NCBI GenBank assembly: GCA_963575745.1
Contig: CAUYUJ010012581.1
Coordinates: forward strand, 117,001 to 181,000
Direction of reading: 5' to 3'
Length of the DNA stretch: 64,000 nt
DNA from: Prorocentrum cordatum
Taxonomy: Eukaryota; Sar; Dinophyceae; Prorocentrales; Prorocentraceae
Part shown: positions 14,890 through 55,920 of the stretch, in pieces
Layout of the letters: each line of letters starts with the position of its first letter
Numbering within the stretch: position 1 is the stretch's first letter
Made by a program: the position numbers and the translations under genes
Notes under the pieces: model-generated
Databases searched by the model: none
Told to the model about the DNA's origin: nothing
What the model saw: the letters and a program-made list of their open reading frames with translations, nothing else

Positions 14890-15060
14890 ATCCTCGCAAT
14901 TTCGGCTTTCGAGTGCACTCGCGTCGACTAGCGCCTGTTAATGGATGAGATGCCGCCGATTTGGCGTCGATGAATTGTCGACTAGCGTCGATCAGCATCG
15001 ATTCGCCAGAGCCAGCAAGATGGTATGGGAGTCACCTATGAGTTGCCACAGAAGAGGACA
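14890..15060. repeat. GTCGATTAGCG cluster, copy 2 with longer 3' part
   Basis: CTCGCAATTTCGGC, then GTCGACTAGCG and GCATCGATTCGC, then GGTATGGGAG....ATGAGTTGCCAC. The same order is found at 41,800-41,990, so this is one dispersed element and not a random cluster. Confidence 0.7.
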
Positions 15061-15374
15061 CATGGTCGTGGTGGACAGGGAACCGTGGAAATTCAAGCAG
15101 GGGAGGATCGACACACGATTCAAGGGCGAATTGGCGCGATTGCAGCGGCGAGGGAGCCAGCAAACCACAAAGCCTCAACCAGGGACTTACCGCGATCATT
15201 ATATATATATATAGACATTGATTATCGATTATGGTGTTGTAACTGCTGCTATGACTTGTTTGATGTTGCTATCCTCCTGTGCTCGTCGCCAGAGTATGCT
15301 CATACATATACATATACACATAATGTATATCCGAGAGGCTTACGCCATTCCGCCGGCCCCCAGAACAGGGAAGA

Positions 15375-15872
15375 CGTCCACGGATGAGGCCTTTCTGGGG
15401 CATCTTGGGGGCTTCTTCGGGCCTCTTAGGAGTTTCTCGGGTGCCGGCTGGCGGTCTCGGGGGTTCTCCTAGCTACCTCTCTTGGGCCCCTGATGGGGCC
15501 TTCTTGGGCTATGTTGGGCGCCTCTTGGGCCGTCTTGGGACGCTCGTCGGCCGTTTGGGGGCCCTCTTGGAGGCTCATTGGGCTGTTTTGAGCGATCTTG
15601 GGGGCGTCTCAAGCCGCCTTGGATGCTGCTGATACAGATATGCGAAGTTGGTGAACGTATAGGTCTCCCATACAGAATGCGGACGCATTTTGCTCCTTGG
15701 GCCCTCTAGAGAATGGTCTTGGAACCCTCTTGGCGCGTCTTTGAGGCCTGCTGGGCAGATGTGAGGCCATTTTGGTCGTCTTGGAGGACTTCGCTTCATG
15801 TAGGAGCCCAGCGTGAGCCAGCTTCGAGGCCATCTTGGACATCTTGCAGGCCACGGGGTGTAGATTTGGAGT
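15375..15872 (+). repeat. CTTGGG array
   Basis: Degenerate CTTGGG / CCTCTTGGGCCGTCTTGG words at 15,375-15,610 and again at 15,715-15,872, separated by about 100 bp of unrelated sequence. A small (TA)n lies at about 15,199-15,213. Confidence 0.75.
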
Positions 15873-16042
15873 CTCATGATGCCCTGGGGGTGAGTAGTTG
15901 ATGGGTTCACAGTGCACCCCCCCGACTGGGCCCCCCTCCTCTAGTGCGATGTTGGACCCTTGGAGAGGGGGAAAGGGGCAGGGGTACAGCCACATGCCTC
16001 ACACGCCTCTTCAAACCTGCAAGTGGGGCTCGGCGGATATAT

Positions 16043-16124
16043 ATGGCGGCGTTTTCAAACTTCCGTTTCCTGCCATCCCGTTTGCCGTCAATGCCACTGT
16101 CTGTTGGCATTCATCTCAAGCTCT
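16043..16124 (+). repeat. Split direct repeat A1 (left end)
   Basis: An 82-bp repeat starting ATGGCGGCGTTTTCAAACTT. It differs from A2 at two positions (T/G in TTCCG(T/G)TCC and C/A in TCAT(C/A)TCAAG). Confidence 0.93.
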
Positions 16125-16142
16125 TTTTTCGACGGCCGGCAC

Positions 16143-17707
16143 ATGTACTCCCGACTGAGGGGCCTAGTCACTTCGCTCGGAGCCATAGTCGGGTCGAACT
16201 TCAGCGGATTCATCGGAGCTGCAGGGGGGCTCAGCAGCCTCGCGCAGCAAGTGACGGACTGCGCAGTGCTGGAGTTGGGCGCACAGTGGGCTCCTGCTGC
16301 ACTGGTGCTGGTCGCGACCTTCGGCTTCTTGGTGGGTGTGCTGTGTACGTGCTGCTATGTCCAGCAGTGCTCTACGAGTCGGGCGCCGCCTCAACCTACA
16401 GTGGGGAGGGGGCGGGACCTGGCAGGCCCGCATCGTCGTTGGTCCAGCCACACGGAAGGATCTCAGCGATATCATGGAGATAGAGGCGAGCGCTCAGCAG
16501 GAGTCAGACGGCAAGATCTGGTACCTTCTGAGCCCGGACCTCGACGTCTACCCAGTGCTGGTGGACGCCCCGGACCTGCGCGGCTACGAGCTTCTGGACA
16601 ACGACGGGAGCGTGCTGTTGAGGTCTGGGCTCCGCCGGGGCGGGAGACCGGTGTACGGCTCCGAGTGGGTGCCCACCGCGCTCGAGTTGGTGGACGCGAT
16701 GGAGGCGGTGGCCCCACAGCTCCAGCCCGAGCGCAGGATGTCCAAGAAGGGTCCGCTTCTTCCGACGGGGGCAGCAGCGCAGACACCTACGGATTTGGTG
16801 AATATAGTGACTGGGAGTGAACGGCTCCCGGACGTGAAGCCACTGCGCTGGTACGTCACGGCTGGGCCCAACAAGTCCGAGATCGACGGCCTCTTCCCCC
16901 ACTCCACGGTGGACGAGTTCGCGCGCTCGGATGACATGGCCATCGCTGTGGTCGGCACCGGCGTGTACACCCTCAGGGCCCTCGACCCGAAGGATGGCGT
17001 CGTGCAGGTGATCCGCGACGACCGCCTGCTGGCGATGGCGAAGGACAGCAGCGGGATCCGCAAGAAGCTGTTCAGGGATGCCGTGCAGGAGGTCACGGAG
17101 AGCCCGTGGCCGGGGTGGCCGCTCCTGGGGCCGCGTACGGCGGCCTGGTGCGTCCGTTCGCTTCATCGCGGAGCAGGACAGCCGCCCCCGGGCCCGCCAC
17201 ACCAAGTGGTTGCACGAGACGGGGCTCGCACAGTCGGACCCGGGGGTGGCTGATCATGAAGTTGCCATGCGGGCCATCGAGTTCGGTCTCGTGTACGATC
17301 AGGTGAACGTTGGAGAGCTCGTGAGCTTCGAGCTCTTGGCCCGGCGGGCGCAGATGGCGGAGTGGCGCTACCGCGACCGCCTAGCGCCCCGCCGGGCCGA
17401 TGAGACGGCGGAGGACGAGCATCTCTACATGGGCGCGGGGGAGACGAGGGGCCTCATCATGATGGCCCCTTTCCTGGTGGAGCACATCTCGACGGAGCTG
17501 CACCGGGAGAGCCAGGTGATGAAGGAGAAGAGGAAGTTGAGGGAGGAGCGCCAGCTCGCGAAGGGCACTGGCGCCGACGGCGACACGAAGGAGAGCCTTC
17601 GCAAGAAGGTCGAGAGTCAGGCTGCGGAGCTTCGCCGGCTTCAGCAGCGAGGGGGCAAGGGAGACCCCGCCGGCGGCCGCGATGCCGGCGGCCGCGGCGC
17701 CAAGTGA
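16143..17707 (+). pseudogene. Gag-like first ORF of the YR retroelement, frameshifted
   Basis: ATG at 16,143 opens a frame encoding a hydrophobic, probably membrane-spanning segment (A-L-V-L-V-A-T-F-G-F-L-V-G-V-L, about 16,296-16,340). The protein-like signal then moves to a second frame between about 16,375 and 16,420, with acidic, globular sequence to about 17,110. It moves to a third frame near 17,110-17,150 and runs to the stop at 17,707. The C-terminal part has a coiled-coil-like charged stretch (17,500-17,650) ending in Gly/Arg-rich sequence. Position before the RT and the basic C terminus suggest a structural (gag-type) protein; there is no CCHC knuckle, so this role is inference. The last 26 bases overlap the start of the RT ORF (ATG 17,682). 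The N-terminal membrane segment is unusual for a gag. Confidence 0.65.
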
Positions 17708-20278
17708 CAGCGCCATGCCCGCGCCTCGGGAGCTGCTTCCAGTGCCGCTCCCGCAGGCGCCCCTCGGCAGCAGCGGGCATGCCAGCTCGTGCTGTCGCAC
17801 GGTGCGGTCTCGTCTACTCCGCCACCGGCATGTCGACGGGTGGGGCATGGAGGTGCATCAGGCGCTGAACTGCCTCCACGGGCGAGGGGGCGCTGATCCT
17901 GGATGCCCGCCCACTCTAGGGCAAAGTTTTGGTTCTGACCATGTGCGAGCTGCTGTTCAAAGTATCGGGGCTCCTACTATCACCGGCGCGGCAGCCTTCA
18001 AGGAGCTGTGCGCCAGCAAGCCCGGCTACACATCGATGCCGGTGAAGCCAGCCGCCTTCCAGCGCGACCTCGTCGCGCTGCCCTCGCCCGGCGCCACGTG
18101 CGACGGCGCCAGCATCCTGCAGGGCGAGGCGCTCGACCTTTGGGAGGATTGGCAGGAGCGGTTGTTGCGGAAGAGCCCAGATATCTCCGCCGTGAAGCCT
18201 CATTGCGACGCGAAGCTGATGCAGAGCAAGTCCAGCTACGCCTCCTTCGTGGCTGACTTGTACGATGCCGGGCTGGTGAAGTTCGGCTCATTACGTGAAT
18301 CTACTCTCGGTATTTTTTTCGTCCCCATGTCTGATGGGAAGTTGCGGCTCATCTTTGACACGCGTCGGGTCAACCAGCTCTTCGAGCCTCCTGCGCACAC
18401 GGCGCTGCCTACGGCTGGCTGCTGGAAGGGGTTACTCTTGGAGCCGAATGACGAGCTGTGCCTCTCGCAAGTTGACGCGGAGGCTTGCTTCTACCGCATG
18501 CGTGCACCTCCCGGGATGGAGGAAGTTTTCGTCTTACCCCCGCTGGACTGCGGTGCCCTTCGCCGACTTCGGCCAGACATCGCCATCGGCGGGGACCTGA
18601 CATGTTCTCCCTTGCTCATCGTTCTGCCCATGGGTTGGAACTGGTCACTGTTTTTTTTGCCAAGAGATGGTCACACAGTGCGTGCAGCGTGCTGGTTACC
18701 CGCCGTCCCGTATTATTGAAGACAAGCGGGCGACTCCATCCCTGGTCGGCCAGACCGCTGCCGCGGTGTACGTCGACGGAGTCGCAGTGATTGGCACGCA
18801 GAGCGCGCAGACCGTGCAGGACTGGTCGCACGATCGCCGAGTCCCTCCTCGCAGTGGGCCTGGTCACAAAGGACATGGAGCTGCCACAGGACGAGCAGCC
18901 GCTCACCGGGCTCATCTTCGAGAAGGGGTCCGGGCGGATCTCCCTCTCGCGCAGCCGGATCTGGAGGATCCGACGGGCTTTCCAGCATGCCGCCGAGGCC
19001 GACAAGCTCACTGGCGTGCAGATGCGCATGCTCCTGGGGCACTACACCTGGGCAGCCATGCTGAGGAGGCCACTGCTGTCCGTCTTCGCCGCCTGCTACT
19101 CCTTCGCGGAGAAGGCCGGGGACATGGCGTGGCGGCCTTGGGCTACTGTACGCCACGAGCTCAGGCTGGGCGCGGCACTGGCGGCGATGGCCTTTGTAGA
19201 TTTGCGTCGGCCTGTCGCCGCCGCTGCCCTGGCTACCGATGCCTCTGGCGGCGCCCGGCAGGTCCGCAGTATCGACCCAGACCTGGCGCCGCCAGGGCTC
19301 GAGTCGGCCGCCGCTGGCGACCACGGTAGCTTCGGCGCGGTCAGCCGCGAAGTCCCTCGCTGTGCCGTGGCCGCCGCTCTTCAGCTCAGCGAGAAGTGGA
19401 GATTCAAGACTCTCGACTTTCTAGGGGCTCGGGCATCAGCGCTCGGCCTCAAGGATGATCCTCACGATGCTGCTGCGCAGAATCATCCTCCTCCTGTGAA
19501 GTATCACCGCGTACCGCCATCTGGGATGGGAGAGTATGCCAACGAGCCTTCATCATCGACGCCGCCGCCACATCGCTACGTCATCACTTGGGAGGAGGAG
19601 CAGAAGTTTTTCGAGATCGGTAAGAGTATATTGGGTTCTCAAGAAGACTGGAAGGTTTGTTTCTATGGACGGTTCAACAGGGCCGCCGCGTCGTTATCCT
19701 GGAGGGGGAGGCTCTGGTCATGGGGGTCCGCCATTTCGTTCGCAACACTGCCAACCATGGGCGTCGCCTGCTGCTGCTATGCGACAACATGGGGCTGGTG
19801 CTCGCATCGGGAAAGGGGAGATCTTCGGTGCCGTCGCTTAACCTCGTGCTTCGTCGGCTTGCTGCGATCTACATCTTCGCCAACATCGATATCACAGCGC
19901 GGTGGATCCCTTCAGAGTTGAATCCAGCAGACGCCCCGTCGAGACTCCCAGCAGCCAGGGCTCAGGACGCCCGCCTCGACCTCCGCTCTTTCGGAGGCCG
20001 CCCTGCACCAGAGCCCGACGATGGCTCGCTATGGCGAGCCGCTGCGGAGGAGCTCGCCGCGGAAGCGCGCCCGCGGCGGCGCGACCCAGGCCTTGCCGGC
20101 CTCGGCGACGCCGCGGCGCCCGCGGCACTGGCCCGGGGCTTCGGGCTCCACCGGGGGGGCATCGGCGTGCAGCCGAACGACTCCTCGGACAGCGACTCGG
20201 AGTCGGAGCCCACGGCCAGCTCGAGCGACTCCAGCCCCAGCGGAGCGAGCTACAGCGAGGAGGGCGAGGTTGGCGGCC
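17682..20278 (+). pseudogene. Reverse transcriptase-RNase H of the YR retroelement, frameshifted
   Basis: RT motifs appear in order: K-L-R-L-I-F-D (18,339-18,359); motif A V-D-A-E-A-C-F with Asp at 18,474; motif B L-P-M-G-W-N-W-S (18,624-18,647); motif C Y-V-D-G (18,769-18,780). Motifs B and C are in different frames. The shift coincides with a run of eight T (18,651-18,658), where seven would keep the frame. A second shift lies near 18,815-18,830 and a third near 19,650-19,670. RNase H follows, with A-T-D-A-S (about 19,230), I-L-E-G-E-A-L, L-L-C-D-N-M-G and R-W-I-P-S-E-L-N-P-A-D-A-P-S-R (about 19,900-19,945). A Ser/Asp/Glu-rich linker (about 20,180-20,260) leads to the recombinase. The family copies RNA into DNA and removes the RNA strand. 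Gly as the second residue after V-D in motif C departs from Y.DD and may itself be damaging. Confidence 0.85.
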
Positions 20279-21301
20279 GAGCGGACCAGGACGGCACGCG
20301 CCACTACCTTGGCGCAGCCGACCGGGACAGCGCTCACGTACCTGCAGGCGCGCAAGATCAGGGCCTCGTCCAACGTGCACTTCGTGACCTCGTACCGGAA
20401 CTTCGACAACTGGTGCCAGACGCACGCCGTGCCAGTTCAGACCGCCAGCGAGATCGACAAGGCCATCAGCGAGTACATGGGCGTGCTCTACTTCGACGGG
20501 ATGCCGTCGGACGTCGCGTCGAAGACGATCGCGGCCGTCCGGCACTTCCGCCCCGCGGCGGTGGGCGGGGCCGAGCTGGCGGCCAGCAGGGCCGCCCTGA
20601 AGGGCTTCCGCCTGGTCGGCCCGGCCCGCGCACGCCAGCCGCTGGTCCGCGAGGCGGTCTTCTGCCTGATAGGGTTGGCGATGCTGGACGGCGAGTCGGG
20701 GTTCGCAGAGGCCCTCAGCTTGGCGTGGGACACCGCCCTCCGCCTGCCCAGCGACCTGATGCAGTTGCGAAGTCCGTCCCTCGTGCCGCCGCAGCCCCGC
20801 ATGGAGATCTACGCGCGGAGCCTGCTGCTGTACCCAGAGGAGACCGGCCTGCGCAGCAAAGGGAAGCAGTTCGACGAGGGGGTCCAGCTCACGCCGGCAG
20901 GCTCCAAGGCCCTCGGCCCTGCCCTGGCGCGCCTACGGGAGCGCCCAGCCCAGGCACCCTTGTGGGACCTCGACGCCAGGCGCTTCGGCCAGCTCTTCAA
21001 GAAGTACGCGGAGATGATCAACCTGAAGGACCCGCACCCATATCGGGTGCGACGCGGTTCGGCGAGCTGGGACATCGCCAGCGGGACGCGGAGCCTCGAG
21101 GCTGTGCAAGCCCGTCTTCGGCACGCCAGCGCGACCAGCACCCAGCGGTGCAGCCGAGCCGCTCGGTACACCGCGGAGCTGGAGCTGGCGCCAGAGTCGG
21201 TCAAAGCCTTCGGCGCCGCGGTGGCGGACCAGTGGGCTTTGACGCTCCAAGGCCGAAGCCGCCTGCCGCCCCGCCCGCGGCGCCCCGACACGCCGTGGTG
21301 A
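20279..21301 (+). pseudogene. Tyrosine recombinase of the YR retroelement, catalytic Tyr apparently replaced
   Basis: The frame is open over about 340 codons to TGA at 21,299-21,301. An N-terminal SAM-like DNA-binding region (T-Y-L-Q-A-R-K-I-R-A-S-S-N-V-H-F and following, from about 20,335) is followed by the catalytic domain. Box I is T-A-L-R-L-P-S-D-L with Arg at 20,741-20,743. The second box is H-P-Y-R-V-R-R-G-S-A-S (from 21,035). The last box is R-L-R-H-A-S-A-T-S-T-Q-R-C-S-R. In the family this box reads GRW/GH ... RRY; the residue aligned with the nucleophilic Tyr is Cys (TGC, 21,149-21,151), one transition from TAC. A Tyr lies six residues later (21,167-21,169) and could be an alternative alignment. 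The enzyme class integrates the circular cDNA. The start is unclear because the frame is entered by a shift near 20,280. Confidence 0.82.
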
Positions 21302-22149
21302 GCAAGAGGCCAGCAGGTGACACATATCAGCCCACTGATTCTTTGCCCCTCTCATCCCTCCGCAAGCGCATGCAGAAGTTGTTTGATGTAGCCCGTAGAG
21401 GCCGCAATCGTGTTCAGGTGTTTCTAGATCTTTTCGCCGGTGACGGCAGTGTCGCTAGCAAAATTTGATCGTGTACTGAATATGGTGTCGTCTCTATCGA
21501 TATTAGGTCTGATCCTTGGCTTGATTTGTCTGACATCCGTCTCGTTCGTATCCTCATGGGTTGGATCGGATGTGGTGCTGTGCGCGGCATATGGATCGCG
21601 CCACCCTGCAGCACCTGGTCAGTGGCCAGCCGTGGTAGATACAGATCGCCTCTTCATATTTACGGGCACCCAGATCTCGATCCCAAAGGTTTTGCCCGTG
21701 CCCAACTCGGAAATGTTTTGTTGAAGCACTCCCTACTGATAGTCACCGCCTGCCTCAAGAGAGGAATGCCTGTTGCACTCGAGAACCCTATGTCCAGTCT
21801 GATGTGGCAAGAGCCCCTACTTTCTCACTTGCTCACCTTGCCGTCTTGCAATACTACCGTCTTTGACTTTTGCGCTCACGGGACGCGGTGGAGAAAAAAC
21901 ACCCGCCTGGCGTCGTGGCACTGCGGCGCAGCCCCTGAGGCGCTGACCCGCCGGTGCCATAGCGTCGGGGTCAGGTGCTCATTCTCTGGCCGTCCTCACA
22001 TTTCCCTCGAGGGTAAAGCCCCTTGCGGGCGGCGCTGGACTTCCATTGCCGAGCCGTACCCGCCCTCCGCGGCCCGTGCGATGGCCCGATGGCTGTCGCG
22101 TGCTGCGGATCGGATTCATCTCGAGAACTTGTCCCGTGTGTGTAATTGA
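21302..22149 (+). pseudogene. C5-methyltransferase-like module of the YR retroelement, one in-frame TGA
   Basis: F-L-D-L-F-A-G-D-G-S-V-A (21,421-21,456) matches the S-adenosylmethionine-binding motif I. V-V-S-I-D-I is a motif II-like acidic strand. P-P-C-S-T-W-S (21,601-21,621) matches the PC motif with the catalytic Cys at 21,607. L-E-N-P-M-S-S-L-M-W (about 21,778-21,807) matches the EN(V/P) motif. Together these suggest a cytosine-5 methyltransferase fold rather than the Dam-like domain of classical DIRS elements. A TGA (21,466-21,468) follows A-S-K-I; the same frame continues with good similarity, and TGG would fit there. The frame overlaps the end of the recombinase frame. Retrotransposons carrying cytosine methyltransferases are known in dinoflagellates. 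The target-recognition region is not evident, so activity even before the stop is uncertain. Confidence 0.65.
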
Positions 22150-22182
22150 CATGTGCCGGCCGGAGGCCAGGTTTGGGTCTTC

Positions 22183-22280
22183 GGTCACTTCAAGCACGTG
22201 CTTCATGGTGGAGCCCGCCGGCCAGCCCGCCGTTCTCCATATAGATCGAACCATCTCTGGTGAAGAAACGGGTGGGACAT
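22183..22280 (+). repeat. Split direct repeat B1
   Basis: A 98-bp repeat starting GGTCACTTCAAGC and ending GGGTGGGACAT. It lies just after the methyltransferase frame and overlaps A2 by AT. Confidence 0.92.
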
Positions 22281-22360
22281 GGCGGCGTTTTCAAACTTCC
22301 GTGTCCTGCCATCCCGTTTGCCGTCAATGCCACTGTCTGTTGGCATTCATATCAAGCTCT
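22279..22360 (+). repeat. Split direct repeat A2
   Basis: The second copy of the 82-bp left-end repeat. Its junction with B1 has the sequence expected if the right end of the element (GGGACAT) is joined to its left end (ATGGCGG) over a shared AT. Confidence 0.92.
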
Positions 22361-22410
22361 CCTCCTCCCTCCCCTCCTCCTGTATGCAAGGATTATGTTA
22401 ATGATCTGCT

Positions 22411-22508
22411 GGTCACTTCAAGCGCGTGCTTCATGGTGGAGCCCGCCGGCCAGCCCGCCGTTCTCCATATAGATCGAACCATCTCTGGTGAAGAAACGGG
22501 TGGGACAT
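22411..22508 (+). repeat. Split direct repeat B2 (right end)
   Basis: A 98-bp repeat matching B1, ending GGGACAT immediately before the (AT)n tract. A 50-bp pyrimidine-rich spacer (22,361-22,410) separates A2 from B2. Confidence 0.92.
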
Positions 22509-22563
22509 ATATAGATATATATATATATATATGTATATCTATATATATATATATATATATATA
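22509..22563. repeat. (AT)n microsatellite at the element/LINE boundary
   Basis: ATAG followed by AT runs of about 55 bp. It lies between the right end of the YR element and the truncated LINE. Confidence 0.9.
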
Positions 22564-22569
22564 TCCGGC

Positions 22570-23927
22570 TTTCTGGGATGCTGATCCCGCTGGGCCGAAC
22601 GCCGACCTAGAGGTCGTCTCTCTCGTGGACGCCGCGTTCGTCGACGACGAGTGCTTCATGCTCACGGCGCGTCTGCCCAAGGAGCTGGACGCTGCCATCG
22701 ACGTCGTGCTGCACGCGGTGTGTGACATCTACGACCGCCTGAACCTGACCATCAATTGGAAAGTGGGCAAGTCCGAGTGCTTCCTCACGCACCGAGGCCA
22801 CGGGGCCACCGCCCGGCTACAGCGGCGCCGGGTGCTTCCCGACGGAGGTCTTGCAGTCGCTGTACCCCGGCCTGGGGCACTACTGCTGGCGGTCACCACC
22901 TATAAGCACCTTGGCGGCGTGGTGAGCGCCACTGGCGCCGCGGCCCCAGGCGCCAACCACTTGAGACAGCAGGCGGCCATGAGCTATGGGCCTCTAGCGA
23001 GCAAGGTTTTCGGCTCGGCGGTCGTGGACGCCAGCTTGAAGGTCTGGCTCATGCACTCGTTGGTCCTCAGCCGCCTCCTCTTCAACGTGCACGTGGTCGT
23101 CCCTACGAGGCGATATCTGCAGGTGCTCAACGGCATGTACATGCGGGTGCTCCGACGAGTCGGCGACGCCCCGCGGTTCGGCCACTCCGAAACGGACCTC
23201 GAGATACGTCAAGCAGCCCAGCTTGGACTGCCTGGCGATGCGTGCTCGTCTCCGCTACTTAGGGCGCCTGGTGCGTAGTTCACCGCCCACGCTGCTGGCC
23301 TTGCTCGCCGCGCGGCCTGGCGGAGCGCGCCTGCCCTGGGTCACTCTGCTTGTCTCCGACCTGGGCAAGCTCCGCGAGCTCGTTGCCCTGTGCAGCACGC
23401 TGCCGCCGCCGGAGGGTACTGCGAGCGCTTGGGTGACGTTCATCGGCGACTCCCCAGCGCGCTGGGCAAATGCCGTGAGCATGTTGTTTTTCACCGACTC
23501 TTGCTGTGACCGTGGCGGCGCCGCTCCAGTCGGAGGCGGCACCCGCCCATTTGCTTGCCACCAGTGCGACGCGCGCTTCGCGACAGCGAAGGCGCGTGAC
23601 CAGCATCTCAGAATTCGAGATCATGTCCGGTGCTTACAGAGAAGCTACGCCAGCGCTGATGCGACCTGCCCGGTGTGCCACACCGCGTTCGGTTCACGCC
23701 TGCGGTTGTTGTCGCACCTTTGCGACTCCCGCCGGCCGGCGTGCTGGGAAGCCGTTCGTGCTTCCCCAGCCCACTACCCTCCGCTACCTGAGAAGCAGGT
23801 CGCTGAGCTTGACGACCTTGACAAGGTGCAGCGCCGCGAGGCTCAGCGTCAAGGCCTGTCGCACGCACCGGCCAAAGGGCCCGCCCGTCGTGCTGACGGC
23901 AGCGTCGTTGGGCGCGCCCGTGTCTGA
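22570..23927 (+). mobile_element. 5'-truncated LINE: RT C-terminal half with C2H2 zinc fingers
   Basis: The sequence starts inside the RT domain. A-F-V-D-D (22,634-22,648) is motif C of the palm, G-K-S-E-C-F-L (about 22,763-22,783) is motif D, and Y-K-H-L-G-G (22,901-22,918) is motif E, typical of non-LTR elements. Thumb-like sequence follows, then a frameshift near 23,215-23,225 to the frame that ends at 23,927. The C terminus has two zinc-finger-like units: C-H-Q-C ... H-L-R-I-R-D-H (about 23,560-23,625) and C-P-V-C-H ... H-L-C (about 23,668-23,730). Zinc fingers at the C terminus of LINE ORF2 probably contact target DNA or RNA. The endonuclease and RT motifs A and B are missing, as in a 5'-truncated insertion. 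(TA)n tracts flank both sides; the 3' one may be the tail of the element. Confidence 0.82.

Positions 23928-23987: not shown

Positions 23988-24033
<46 letters not shown>
23988..24033. repeat. (TA)n microsatellite after the LINE
   Basis: A pure TA run of about 44 bp, 60 bp after the LINE stop codon. It may be the LINE 3' tail. Confidence 0.88.
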
Positions 24034-36689: not shown

Positions 36690-38570
36690 GTGCCGCTTTC
36701 GGTGGGGCTCCATATGGGGCCACGAAGCGCTGCCTTGGATGGGGGAACCGCATGCGGACTGCGCCACCGGGGCGGGCCTTCGGTGGAGCTCCCTATGGGG
36801 CTACGAAACGCTGCCCTGGGTGGGGGAACCGCATGCGAACTGCGCCACTGGGGCCTTCGGTGGAGCTCCCTATGGTGCCACGAAACGCTGCCCTGGGTGG
36901 GGGAACCGCATGCGAACACCGCCACTGGGGCCTTCGGTGGAGCTCCCTATGGGGCCACGAAACGCTGCCCTGGGTGGGGGAACCGCATGCGAACACCCCC
37001 ACTGGGGCCTTCGGTGGAGCTCCCTATGGGGCCACGAAACGCTGCCCTGGGTGGGGGAACCGCATGCGAACACCCCCACTGGGGCCTTCGGTGGAGCTCC
37101 CTATGGGGCTACGAAACGCTGCCCTGGGTGGGGGAACCGCATGCGAACACCCCCACTGGGGCCTTCGGTGGAGCTCCCTATGGGGCCACGAAACGCTGCC
37201 CTGGGTGGGGGAACCGCATGCGAACACCCCCACTGGGGCCTTCGGTGGAGCTCCCTATGGGGCTACGAAACGCTGCCCTGGGTGGGGGAACCGCATGCGA
37301 ACACCCCCACTGGGGCCTTCGGTGGAGCTCCCTATGGGGCCACGAAACGCTGCCCTGGGTGGGGGAACCGCATGCGAACACCCCCACTGGGGCCTTCGGT
37401 GGAGCTCCCTATGGGGCTACGAAACGCTGCCCTGGGTGGGGGAACCGCATGCGAACACCCCCACTGGGGCCTTCGGTGGAGCTCCCTATGGGGCCACGAA
37501 ACGCTGCCCTGGGTGGGGGAACCGCATGCGAACACCCCCACTGGGGCCTTCGGTGGAGCTCCCTATGGGGCTACGAAACGCTGCCCTGGGTGGGGGAACC
37601 GCATGCGAACACCCCCACTGGGGCCTTCGGTGGAGCTCCCTATGGGGCCACGAAACGCTGCCCTGGGTGGGGGAACCGCATGCGAACACCCCCACTGGGG
37701 CCTTCGGTGGAGCTCCCTATGGGGCCACGAAACGCTGCCCTGGGTGGGGGAACCGCATGCGAACACCCCCACTGGGGCCTTCGGTGGAGCTCCCTATGGG
37801 GCCACGAAACGCTGCCCTGGGTGGGGGAACCGCATGCGAACACCCCCACTGGGGCCTTCGGTGGAGCTCCCTATGGGGCCACGAAACGCTGCCCTGGGTG
37901 GGGGAACCGCATGCGAACACCCCCACTGGGGCCTTCGGTGGAGCTCCCTATGGGGAAACGCTGCCCTGGGTGGGGGAACCGCATGCGAACACCCCCACTG
38001 GGGCCAACACCGCTGCCCTGGGTGGGGGAACTGGGCCTTCGGTGGAGCTCCCTATGGGGCCACGAAACGCTGCCCTGGGTGGGGGAACCGCATGCGAACA
38101 CCCCCACTGGGGCCTTCGGTGGAGCTCCCTATGGGGCTACGAAACGCTGCCCTGGGTGGGGGAACCGCATGCGAACACCCCCACTGGGGCCTTCGGTGGA
38201 GCTCCCTATGGGGCCACGAAACGCTGCCCTGGGTGGGGGAACCGCATGCGAACACCCCCACTGGGGCCTTCGGTGGAGCTCCCTATGGGGCCACGAAACG
38301 CTGCCCTGGGTGGGGGAACCGCATGCGAACACCCCCACTGGGGCCTTCGGTGGAGCTCCCTATGGGGCCACGAAACGCTGCCCTGGGTGGGGGAACCGCA
38401 TGCGAACACCCCCAGCTGGGGCTACTGGGAACCGGTGGGGCCTTCGGTGGAGCTCCCTATGGGGCCACGAAACGCTGCCCTGGGTGGGGGAACCGCATGC
38501 GAACACCCCCACTGGGGCCTTCGGTGGAGCTCCCTATGGGGCTACGAAACGCGTGAGAGGTGTGCCGAGA
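36690..38570 (+). repeat. 77-bp satellite array with 154-bp dimer structure
   Basis: About 24 copies of a 77-bp unit (TCGGTGGAGCTCCCTATGGG ... CTGCCCTGGGTGGGGGAACC ... GCGAACACCCCCACTG). Copies from about 37,033 to 37,649 alternate between ...GGGGCC and ...GGGGCT, a 154-bp higher-order unit; later copies are uniform. Two rearranged copies lie at 37,957-38,035 and an insertion at about 38,413-38,440. All three + frames are open because 77 is not a multiple of 3 and the unit has no + strand stop. This is composite module copy C. Confidence 0.93.
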
Positions 38571-39444: not shown

Positions 39445-40435
39445 GGGGGCGCATGCGGACTGTCCCACTGGGACCTTCGGTGGAGCTTCCTATGGGGCCA
39501 CGAAACGTGCGAGGGGTGTGCCGAAAATGGGTGTGCGGGACGCATGCGGGCACACCCACAGGGACCTTCGGTGGAGCTCCCTATGGGGCCACGAAACGTG
39601 CGAGGGGTGTGCCGAAATGGGTGTGCGGGACGCATGCGGGCACACCCACTGGGACCTTCGGTGGAGCTCCCTATGGGGCCACGAAACGTGTGAGGGGTGT
39701 GCAGAAATGGGTGTGCGGGACGCATGCGGGCACACCCACTGGGACTTTCGGTGGAGCTTCCTATGGGGCCACGAAGCGTGTGACGGGTGTGCCCCAATGG
39801 GTGTGCGGGACGCATGCGGGCACACCCAGTGGGACCTTCGGTGGAGCTTCCTATGGGGCCACGAAGCGTGTGACGGGTGTGCCCCAATGGGTGTGCGGGA
39901 CGCATGCGGGCACACCCAGTGGGACCTTCGGTGGAGCTCCCTATGGGGCCACGAAACGTGTAAGTGGTGTGCCGAAATGGGTATGCGGGACGCATGCGGG
40001 CACACCCACAGGGACCTTCGGTGGAGCTCCCTATGGGGCCACGAAGCGTGTGAAGGGTGTGCCGAAATGGGTGTGCGGGACGCATGTGGGCACACCCGCT
40101 GGGACTTTCGGTGGAGCTCCCTATGGACTCACGAAACGTGCGCAGGGTGTGCCGAAATGGGTGTGCGGGAGGCATGCGGGCACACCCACTGGGACCTCCG
40201 GTGGAGCTTCCTATGGGGCCACGAAGCGTGTGAGGGGTGTGCCGAAATGGGTGTGCGGGACGCATGCGGGCACACCCACTGGGACCTTCGGCGGAGCTCC
40301 TATGGGGCCACGAAACGTGTGAGGGGTGTGCCGAAATGGGTGTGCGGGACGCATGCGAGCACACCCACTTGGACCTTCGGCGGAGCTCCCTATGGGGCCA
40401 CGAAGCGTGTGAGGGGTGTGCCGAAATGGGTGATG
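39445..40435 (+). repeat. 90-bp satellite array
   Basis: About 11 copies, period 90 bp (GGGACCTTCG at 39,651, GGGACTTTCG at 39,741, GGGACCTTCG at 39,831). It shares TTCGGTGGAGCTCCCTATGG and the GGGGCCACGAA core with the 77-bp array but carries GTGTGAGGGGTGTGCCGAAA in place of the CTGCCCTGGG part. 90 is a multiple of 3, so one frame stays open. Confidence 0.93.
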
Positions 40436-54880: not shown

Positions 54881-55017
54881 AGGATCGGTGGTTTGGGGGT
54901 GAGATCGAAGTGGAACGGAGAGCCCCCCACAAGGACATCGGTTTCGGTTTCGTGCTCGTGTCGTGCGTGCGGGCGAGGCGAAGCTGCGTGCGCGGGCGAG
55001 AGGAATTCATTCTGCTG

Positions 55018-55920
55018 TCGCTGGTGGTTTGCCAACATAAATGTTTCCCCCGCCGGCGCGCGTCAAGCGGTGGCCCGCATTGTCCCGTCGGTTGCCCGCC
55101 GTTGTCCTGTCTGTCGCTAGTGGTTCGCCAACATGAATGTTTCCCCCGCCGGCGCGTGTCAAGCGGTGGCCCGCATTGTCCCGTCGGTTGCCCGCCGTTG
55201 TCCTGTTTGTCGCTAGTGGTTTGCCAACATAAATGTTTCCCCCGCCGGCGCGTGTCAAGCGGTGGCCCGCATTGTCCCGTTGGTTCCCCGCCGTTGTCCT
55301 GTGTGTCGCTGGTGGTTCGCCAACATAACTGTTTCCCCCGCCGTTGTCAAGCGGTGGCCCGCATCAAACATAAATGTTTCCCCCGCCGGCGCGTGTCAAG
55401 CGGTGGCCCGCATTGTCCCGTTGGTTGCCCGCCGTTGTCCTGTGGTCGCTGGTGGTTCGCCAACATAACTGTTTCCCCCGCCGGCGCTTGTCAAGCGGTG
55501 GCCCGCATTGACCCGTCGGTTGCCCGCCTTTGTCCTGTCTGTCGCTAGTGGTTCGCCAACATAATTGTTTCCCCCGCCGGCGTGTGTCAAGTGGTATCCC
55601 GCATTGTCCTGTCGGTCGCCCGCCGTTGTCCTGTCTGTCGCTAGTGGCTCGCCAACATAACTGTTTCCCCCGCCGGCGCTTGTCAAGCGGTGGCCCGCAT
55701 TGACCCGTCGGTTGCCCGCCTTTGTCCTGTCTGTCGCTAGTGGTTCGCCAACATAAATGTTTCCCCCGCCGGCGCGTGTCAAGCGGTGGCCCGCATTGTC
55801 CCGTTGGTTCCCCGCCGTTGTCCTGTGTGTCGCTGGTGGTTCGCCAATATGTTCCCCCCGCCGGCGCGTGTCAAGCGGTAGCCCGCATTGTCCTGTCGGT
55901 CGCCCGCCGTTGTCCTGTCG
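55018..55920. repeat. 96-bp tandem repeat
   Basis: About 9 units, period 96 bp (for example starts at 55,024 and 55,120): GGTTCGCCAACATAAATGTT, CCCCGCCGGCGCGTGTCAAG, TGGCCCGCATTGTCCCGTCG and TTGTCCTGTCTGTCGCTAGT. One unit (about 55,345-55,370) is shortened. The period is a multiple of 3, so ORFs run through it on both strands. Confidence 0.92.

What the first reader, a model, noticed from the sequence alone, without database searches (positions are those of the whole stretch)
16043..22508. Nearly complete Ngaro/DIRS-type tyrosine-recombinase retroelement with split direct repeats
The repeats read A1 - ORFs - B1 - A2 - B2, the diagnostic order of this class, and the interior carries RT, RNase H and a tyrosine recombinase. 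Recognising the ends gives exact boundaries for an element that annotation by coding similarity alone would miss.
Basis: partly seen in the sequence, partly recalled or inferred. Interest (0 to 1): 0.85.

Follow-up and report, generated by a model that had tools for sequence, protein, structure and literature searches.

The report
Decayed DIRS-type jumping element, probably dinoflagellate
This is a nearly complete but broken copy of a known class of retrotransposon that integrates with a tyrosine recombinase, probably in a dinoflagellate; its ends are clear, but the kind is already described.

Summary
A1 (16043-16124) matches A2 (22279-22360) at 80/82, and B1 (22183-22280) matches B2 (22411-22508) at 97/98, in the order A1-coding-B1-A2-B2. 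B1 and A2 overlap by AT, and the element sits in AT repeat, as expected if a circle with one B-AT-A junction recombined at AT without target duplication. If that domain is real, the element is not Ngaro as defined in print (Ngaro lacks it), but nearer PAT-like elements or the Symbiodinium SymbioDIRS-Dnmt3 elements, published in 2018 with the same A-coding-B-A-B order (PMC5890265). The copy looks dead: apparent frame changes, one internal stop, Cys at the likely catalytic Tyr. Copies elsewhere in the assembly could not be searched (tool did not complete). New member of a known kind; modest interest.

The parts
16043..16124 (+). A1, left terminal repeat (82 nt)
   Evidence: 80/82 identical to A2
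16143..17707 (+). gag-position ORF1, with apparent frame changes near 16.4 and 17.15 kb; begins with a hydrophobic stretch (max 19-residue Kyte-Doolittle mean 2.45)
   Evidence: ATG at 16143, open frames, third-position GC switching from pos%3=0 to pos%3=1 at about 17.14 kb; no Pfam match for the 16255-17250 frame; the 17012-17704 frame has only two weak PHROG hits of unknown function (E 0.092 and 0.32), so 'gag' is by position only
17715..18946 (+). reverse transcriptase; frame changes near 18.66 and 18.81 kb; YVDG at the YxDD position (18769-18780)
   Evidence: 17 relatives at E<=0.01, best 2.4e-40; 8 of 8 relatives scanned (of 17) match RVT_1 at E<=0.01, 2 of 8 above Pfam's cut-off; tblastn positions by frame; YVDG position
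18830..19980 (+). connection/RNase H-like region (TDAS motif near 19.24 kb; ADAPSRL near 19.93 kb); frame change near 19.65 kb
   Evidence: P0014 aligns to 18833-19474 and P0004 to 18830-19204; PF00336 DNA_pol_viral_C at E 0.04, below cut-off; motifs recalled
20003..21301 (+). tyrosine recombinase (open frame 19922-21301), overlapping the end of the RNase H frame; the likely catalytic-Tyr position reads Cys in this copy
   Evidence: P0001 37% identity over 69%, E 5e-52; phrog_216 integrase 2.6e-4, phrog_1 integrase 0.0035; PF00589 0.078, below cut-off; alignment A1; residue numbers
21337..22149 (+). putative DNA-methyltransferase-like domain (FLDLFAGDGS, IAPPCSTWS, ALENP), one internal TGA at 21466
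   Evidence: phrog_757 'DNA methyltransferase' E 0.0036 and 0.003; no Pfam match, no NCBIfam match; no relative in protein search; motifs recalled
22183..22280 (+). B1, internal repeat (98 nt); last two bases AT shared with A2
   Evidence: 97/98 identical to B2
22279..22360 (+). A2, internal repeat (82 nt); B1-A2 is the predicted circle junction
22361..22410 (+). 50-nt A2-B2 spacer, pyrimidine-rich at its start
   Evidence: sequence
22411..22508 (+). B2, right terminal repeat
22507..22564 (.). AT microsatellite, inferred target of insertion
   Evidence: left flank also ends GGATATAT

Best explanation
A decayed copy of a DIRS-order (tyrosine-recombinase) retrotransposon with split direct repeats, in a probable dinoflagellate genome. 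Inferred cycle: the element is transcribed from A1 to B2; RT/RNase H make cDNA; the internal B1-A2 block, which holds the two outer ends joined, serves as template or splint to close the cDNA into a circle with a single B-AT-A junction; the recombinase exchanges strands between the AT of that junction and an AT in the chromosome (here in AT repeat), leaving A1 at the left, B2 at the right and no target duplication. Shown here: anatomy, RT and YR homology, AT overlap, AT flanks. Inferred: circle, splint role, recombination at AT, role of the methyltransferase-like domain.
For: Repeat order and identities. RT relatives. YR relative and integrase profiles. B1/A2 overlap of AT and AT on both flanks; uninterrupted AT/TA runs of 10 nt or more cover only 0.34% of the window, the element's own right flank included. 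Third-position GC marks the coding frames, with the YR frame strongest at 20390-21189. The same repeat order is reported for DIRS elements of Symbiodinium. A 3-bp circular junction and no target duplication are reported for DIRS1-like elements.
Against: Pfam recognises no RT, RNase H or YR domain above cut-off in the window's own frames, and NCBIfam gives the YR only a weak recombinase hit (E 0.15, behind an unrelated hit at 0.069). P0001, the YR's one relative, has no Pfam match at E<=10 and only phrog_216 at 0.081. The canonical His-x-x-Arg box reads HPYxxR in both proteins, so the usual His is not clearly in place. The AF2 models were useless (mean pLDDT 38.9 and 33.9). The AT target rests on one copy, with only 6 nt of AT on the left. 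No second copy could be looked for: the genome search did not complete (16 calls).
Confidence: 0.9

Rival explanations
1. It is a Ngaro element in the strict sense (no methyltransferase) and the C-terminal domain is a chance profile hit.
For: Split direct repeats downstream of the YR; the methyltransferase hit is weak (E 0.003) and Pfam and NCBIfam give nothing; no relative in the protein search.
Against: The 21337-22146 frame is open but for one stop, carries three methyltransferase-like motifs (recalled), and the profile hit, residues 76-202, covers two of them.
Confidence: 0.2
2. It belongs to the SymbioDIRS / PAT-like side: a split-repeat DIRS element with a methyltransferase domain.
For: Same repeat order in a dinoflagellate; methyltransferase-like domain; RT relative from Amphidinium; DIRS/PAT elements are described with an MT domain.
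Against: No Dnmt-type (PF00145) or Dam (PF05869) match. The domain lies after the YR, whereas SymbioDIRS-Dnmt3 has the DNMT in Pol with the RT. No SymbioDIRS sequence could be compared.
Confidence: 0.55
3. The repeats come from unrelated nested insertions or tandem duplication, not from one element.
For: A2-B2 has a 50-nt spacer, and a LINE-like fragment adjoins on the right (by reading).
Against: The outer ends A1 and B2 are exactly the two ends joined at B1-A2, sharing the same AT; RT and YR lie between.
Confidence: 0.03

Closest known systems
SymbioDIRS-Dnmt3 and Dnmt-less DIRS elements of Symbiodinium (PMC5890265; passages and sections 6 and 7 read)
   Same: A-coding-B-A-B repeats (reported for SymbioDIRS-Dnmt3), RT, RNase H, tyrosine recombinase, dinoflagellate host, a DNA-methyltransferase-type domain in one group
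   Different: Their DNMT is Dnmt3, in Pol with the RT; here the weak methyltransferase-like domain lies after the YR and is not detectably Dnmt3. No sequence comparison was possible.
PAT-like elements (Pat1, Toc, Kangaroo)
   Same: Split direct repeats plus a methyltransferase domain in the DIRS group (PMC4157794, passages read)
   Different: The DIRS-group MT is described as Dam-like N-6-adenine type (PMC3783388, passages); no PF05869 match here. Relationship by tree not tested.
Ngaro elements
   Same: A1-ORFs-B1A2B2, RT, RNase H, YR; about 6 kb (PMC8547959, passages read)
   Different: Ngaro lacks an MT domain and does not usually have ORF overlaps (PMC3266345, passages read).

Membership tests
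DIRS order (YR retrotransposons) | reverse transcriptase | tested here: met
   17 relatives, best E 2.4e-40; RVT_1 in 8 of 8 relatives scanned, 2 above cut-off
DIRS order (YR retrotransposons) | tyrosine recombinase | tested here: met
   phrog_216 integrase 2.6e-4 and phrog_1 0.0035; P0001 5e-52. Against: Pfam only 0.078, below cut-off; P0001 itself has no Pfam match and phrog_216 only at 0.081
DIRS order (YR retrotransposons) | RNase H | tested here: inconclusive
   recalled motifs, collinearity with P0014 and P0004, PF00336 E 0.04 below cut-off
DIRS order (YR retrotransposons) | no target-site duplication; junction bases shared with the target | tested here: inconclusive
   One copy only: AT at B1-A2 and at both ends; no empty site available
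Ngaro | A1-ORFs-B1-A2-B2 split direct repeats | tested here: met
Ngaro | no methyltransferase domain | tested here: inconclusive
   phrog_757 E 0.003, no Pfam match
Ngaro | groups with Ngaro in an RT or YR tree | not testable with these tools
   no reference Ngaro sequences at hand
PAT-like | split direct repeats plus methyltransferase domain | tested here: inconclusive
   repeats met; methyltransferase-like hit weak, PF05869 not found
SymbioDIRS-Dnmt3 | Dnmt3 domain (PF00145) in Pol | tested here: not met
   no PF00145 match in the frames scanned
DIRS1-like | inverted terminal repeats and internal complementary regions | tested here: not met
   8 inverted pairs of 25 nt or more in 15000-23600, all 8 in the AT array at 22503-22566; shorter or gapped inverted repeats were not excluded

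The most novel reading that the evidence does not exclude
A dinoflagellate lineage of split-repeat DIRS elements with its own methyltransferase-like domain, neither Dnmt3 nor Dam, placed after the recombinase, and with a two-base AT core that directs insertion into AT microsatellites.
Probability: 0.25. Interest if true: 0.5.

Novelty: new member of a known kind. Interest (0 to 1): 0.32.

Why it matters
It gives exact ends and a junction sequence for an element of a poorly annotated class in what is probably a dinoflagellate genome. If further copies confirm the AT core, the target choice of these elements can be read straight from genome sequence. If the methyltransferase-like domain is real, it would be a further methyltransferase capture by DIRS elements.

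Tried and rejected
Structure prediction: YR with a two-row alignment (pLDDT 38.9) and the methyltransferase-like piece alone (33.9); both unusable, so no fold search was made. Relatives in viral contigs: YR, RT, methyltransferase-like, P0003 and the B1-A2 junction pattern: none confirmed in 7 scans. PDB by sequence: nothing relevant in 3 of 3 searches. Protein search for the methyltransferase-like piece: none of 236 candidates at E<=0.001. The YR search scored only the 7996 candidates sharing most words. Rfam and tRNA scans of the window: 0 matches. Dinoflagellate spliced leader (recalled 21-mer, up to 3 mismatches) in the window: 0 matches, so the host is inferred only from the one named RT relative and the literature.

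Overlap test: the RNase H/methyltransferase frame is open through the whole YR region. In shuffles that keep the YR protein this happens in 2.2% of cases for 20003-21298 and 11.6% for 20288-21298. Of the eight other frame tests made in the same call, one (an alternative frame of 18860-19639, with three stops) gave a similarly low 1.2%, so the test does not discriminate. Third-position GC in 20390-21189 favours the YR frame, so a full-length overlapping Pol is not claimed.
Full report
Observation. A1 16043-16124 and A2 22279-22360 agree at 80 of 82 positions; B1 22183-22280 and B2 22411-22508 agree at 97 of 98. BLAST E-values within the 64-kb window are 1e-34 and 3e-45, and at E<=1e-3 the element has no other match in the window. 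The order is A1-coding-B1-A2-B2. B1 and A2 overlap by AT. The left end is preceded by GGATATAT (6 nt of AT), and the right end runs into an AT array to 22564. Uninterrupted AT/TA runs of at least 10 nt make up 0.34% of the window, this array included, so the location suggests AT targeting, but it is one copy. A 50-nt spacer lies between A2 and B2; the printed flanks of A1 and B1 show no counterpart.

Coding content. Of 8 relatives scanned (of 17), 8 match RVT_1 at E<=0.01 and 2 of these 8 exceed Pfam's cut-off. tblastn of all 18 fetched proteins against the window shows the RT running in one frame to about 18656, in a second to about 18.81 kb and in a third from about 18.82 kb. P0014 and P0004 continue the match to 19474 and 19204, into the region that carries RNase H-like motifs. 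The RNase H call itself is weak (PF00336 at E 0.04, below cut-off).

Recombinase. The ORF ending at 21301 has one relative, P0001 (E 5e-52, 37% identity over 69%; only the 7996 candidates sharing most words were scored), and integrase profile hits (phrog_216 2.6e-4, phrog_1 0.0035; PF00589 0.078, below its cut-off; NCBIfam XerA 0.15, behind an unrelated hit). P0001 itself has no Pfam match at E<=10 and only phrog_216 at 0.081. In the alignment with P0001 LRLPSDLM, HPYxxR and RLRH are shared; the usual His-x-x-Arg box is thus not clearly present in either protein. Where P0001 reads KRYSK (Tyr 300) the window reads QRCSR (Cys 383). The window's matches to PF00589, phrog_216 and phrog_1 all end at residue 382, and P0001's phrog_216 match (residues 239-302, profile 159-223) would put Tyr 300 at about profile position 221, right after the window's last matched position, 220. 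That this is the catalytic tyrosine is my inference from these positions and recalled motifs.

Methyltransferase-like domain. After the recombinase, 21337-22149 is one frame with a single TGA at 21466. It carries FLDLFAGDGS, IAPPCSTWS and ALENP (residues 29, 87 and 147 of the piece), which by recall resemble DNA-methyltransferase motifs, and it matches phrog_757 'DNA methyltransferase' at E 0.0036 (21469-22146) and 0.003 (stop read as X, residues 76-202). Pfam gives nothing, neither PF00145 nor PF05869, NCBIfam gives nothing, and the protein search found no relative. I treat it as likely but unproven.

State of the copy. Third-position GC and open frames with tblastn indicate frame changes near 16.4, 17.15, 18.66, 18.81 and 19.65 kb, plus the stop at 21466 and the Tyr-to-Cys difference. 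Those at 18.66 and 18.81 kb are backed by homology. The others rest on open frames, motifs and composition. The repeats differ at 3 of 180 positions; no rate is available for a date. Assembly error was not excluded for any of the frame changes.

Mechanism. In DIRS1-like elements a 3-bp junction recombines with an identical genomic sequence without target duplication (PMC3266345, passages). [quoted passage not shown] The anatomy here fits: the internal B1-A2 block is the two outer ends joined on AT, and the target flanks offer AT. Circle formation and recombination at AT are inferred.

Comparison with what is known. PMC5890265 (start of abstract in a listing, passages, sections 6 and 7) reports SymbioDIRS-Dnmt3 elements in Symbiodinium with the order A-coding region-B-A-B, and DIRS elements without a DNMT. 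PMC4157794 and PMC3266345 (passages) state that Ngaro and Viper elements lack the methyltransferase domain and that PAT elements have split direct repeats. PMC3783388 (passages) calls the DIRS methyltransferase N-6-adenine type (Dam, PF05869). PMC8547959 (passages) describes Ngaro elements of a protist with A1-[ORFs]-B1A2B2. So the element belongs to the DIRS order with split repeats; the name Ngaro is not established; PAT-like or SymbioDIRS-like is at least as likely. No reference sequences were available for a tree. Paper searches were (open-licence PMC only); the only paper on dinoflagellate DIRS elements that I opened is PMC5890265, and I make no claim about what is absent from print.

Limits. 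The host is inferred to be a dinoflagellate from one named RT relative and the literature; the dinoflagellate spliced leader (recalled) was not found in the window.

Noticed in passing
22562-23924: LINE-like fragment next to the AT array: an FVDD-type RT remnant by reading (no Pfam match for 22562-23275) and, in another frame, a C2H2 zinc-finger hit (PF13894, E 2e-4, below cut-off); a second AT array follows at 23992-24033.
   Followed up: partly
36698-38518: Large tandem array with a 77-nt unit, 17 copies at 97% and 5.1 copies at 99% matches, and a 90-nt array with a similar-looking unit at 39446-40432.
   Followed up: no
55015-55919: 96-nt tandem array with higher-order 236- and 332-nt periods.
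   Followed up: no
18769-18780: RT active-site motif reads YVDG. Of the 12 relatives that reach the motif, 10 have YVDN, one YVDG (P0010) and one YVDK, so YVDG is probably a lineage variant and not decay.
   Followed up: partly
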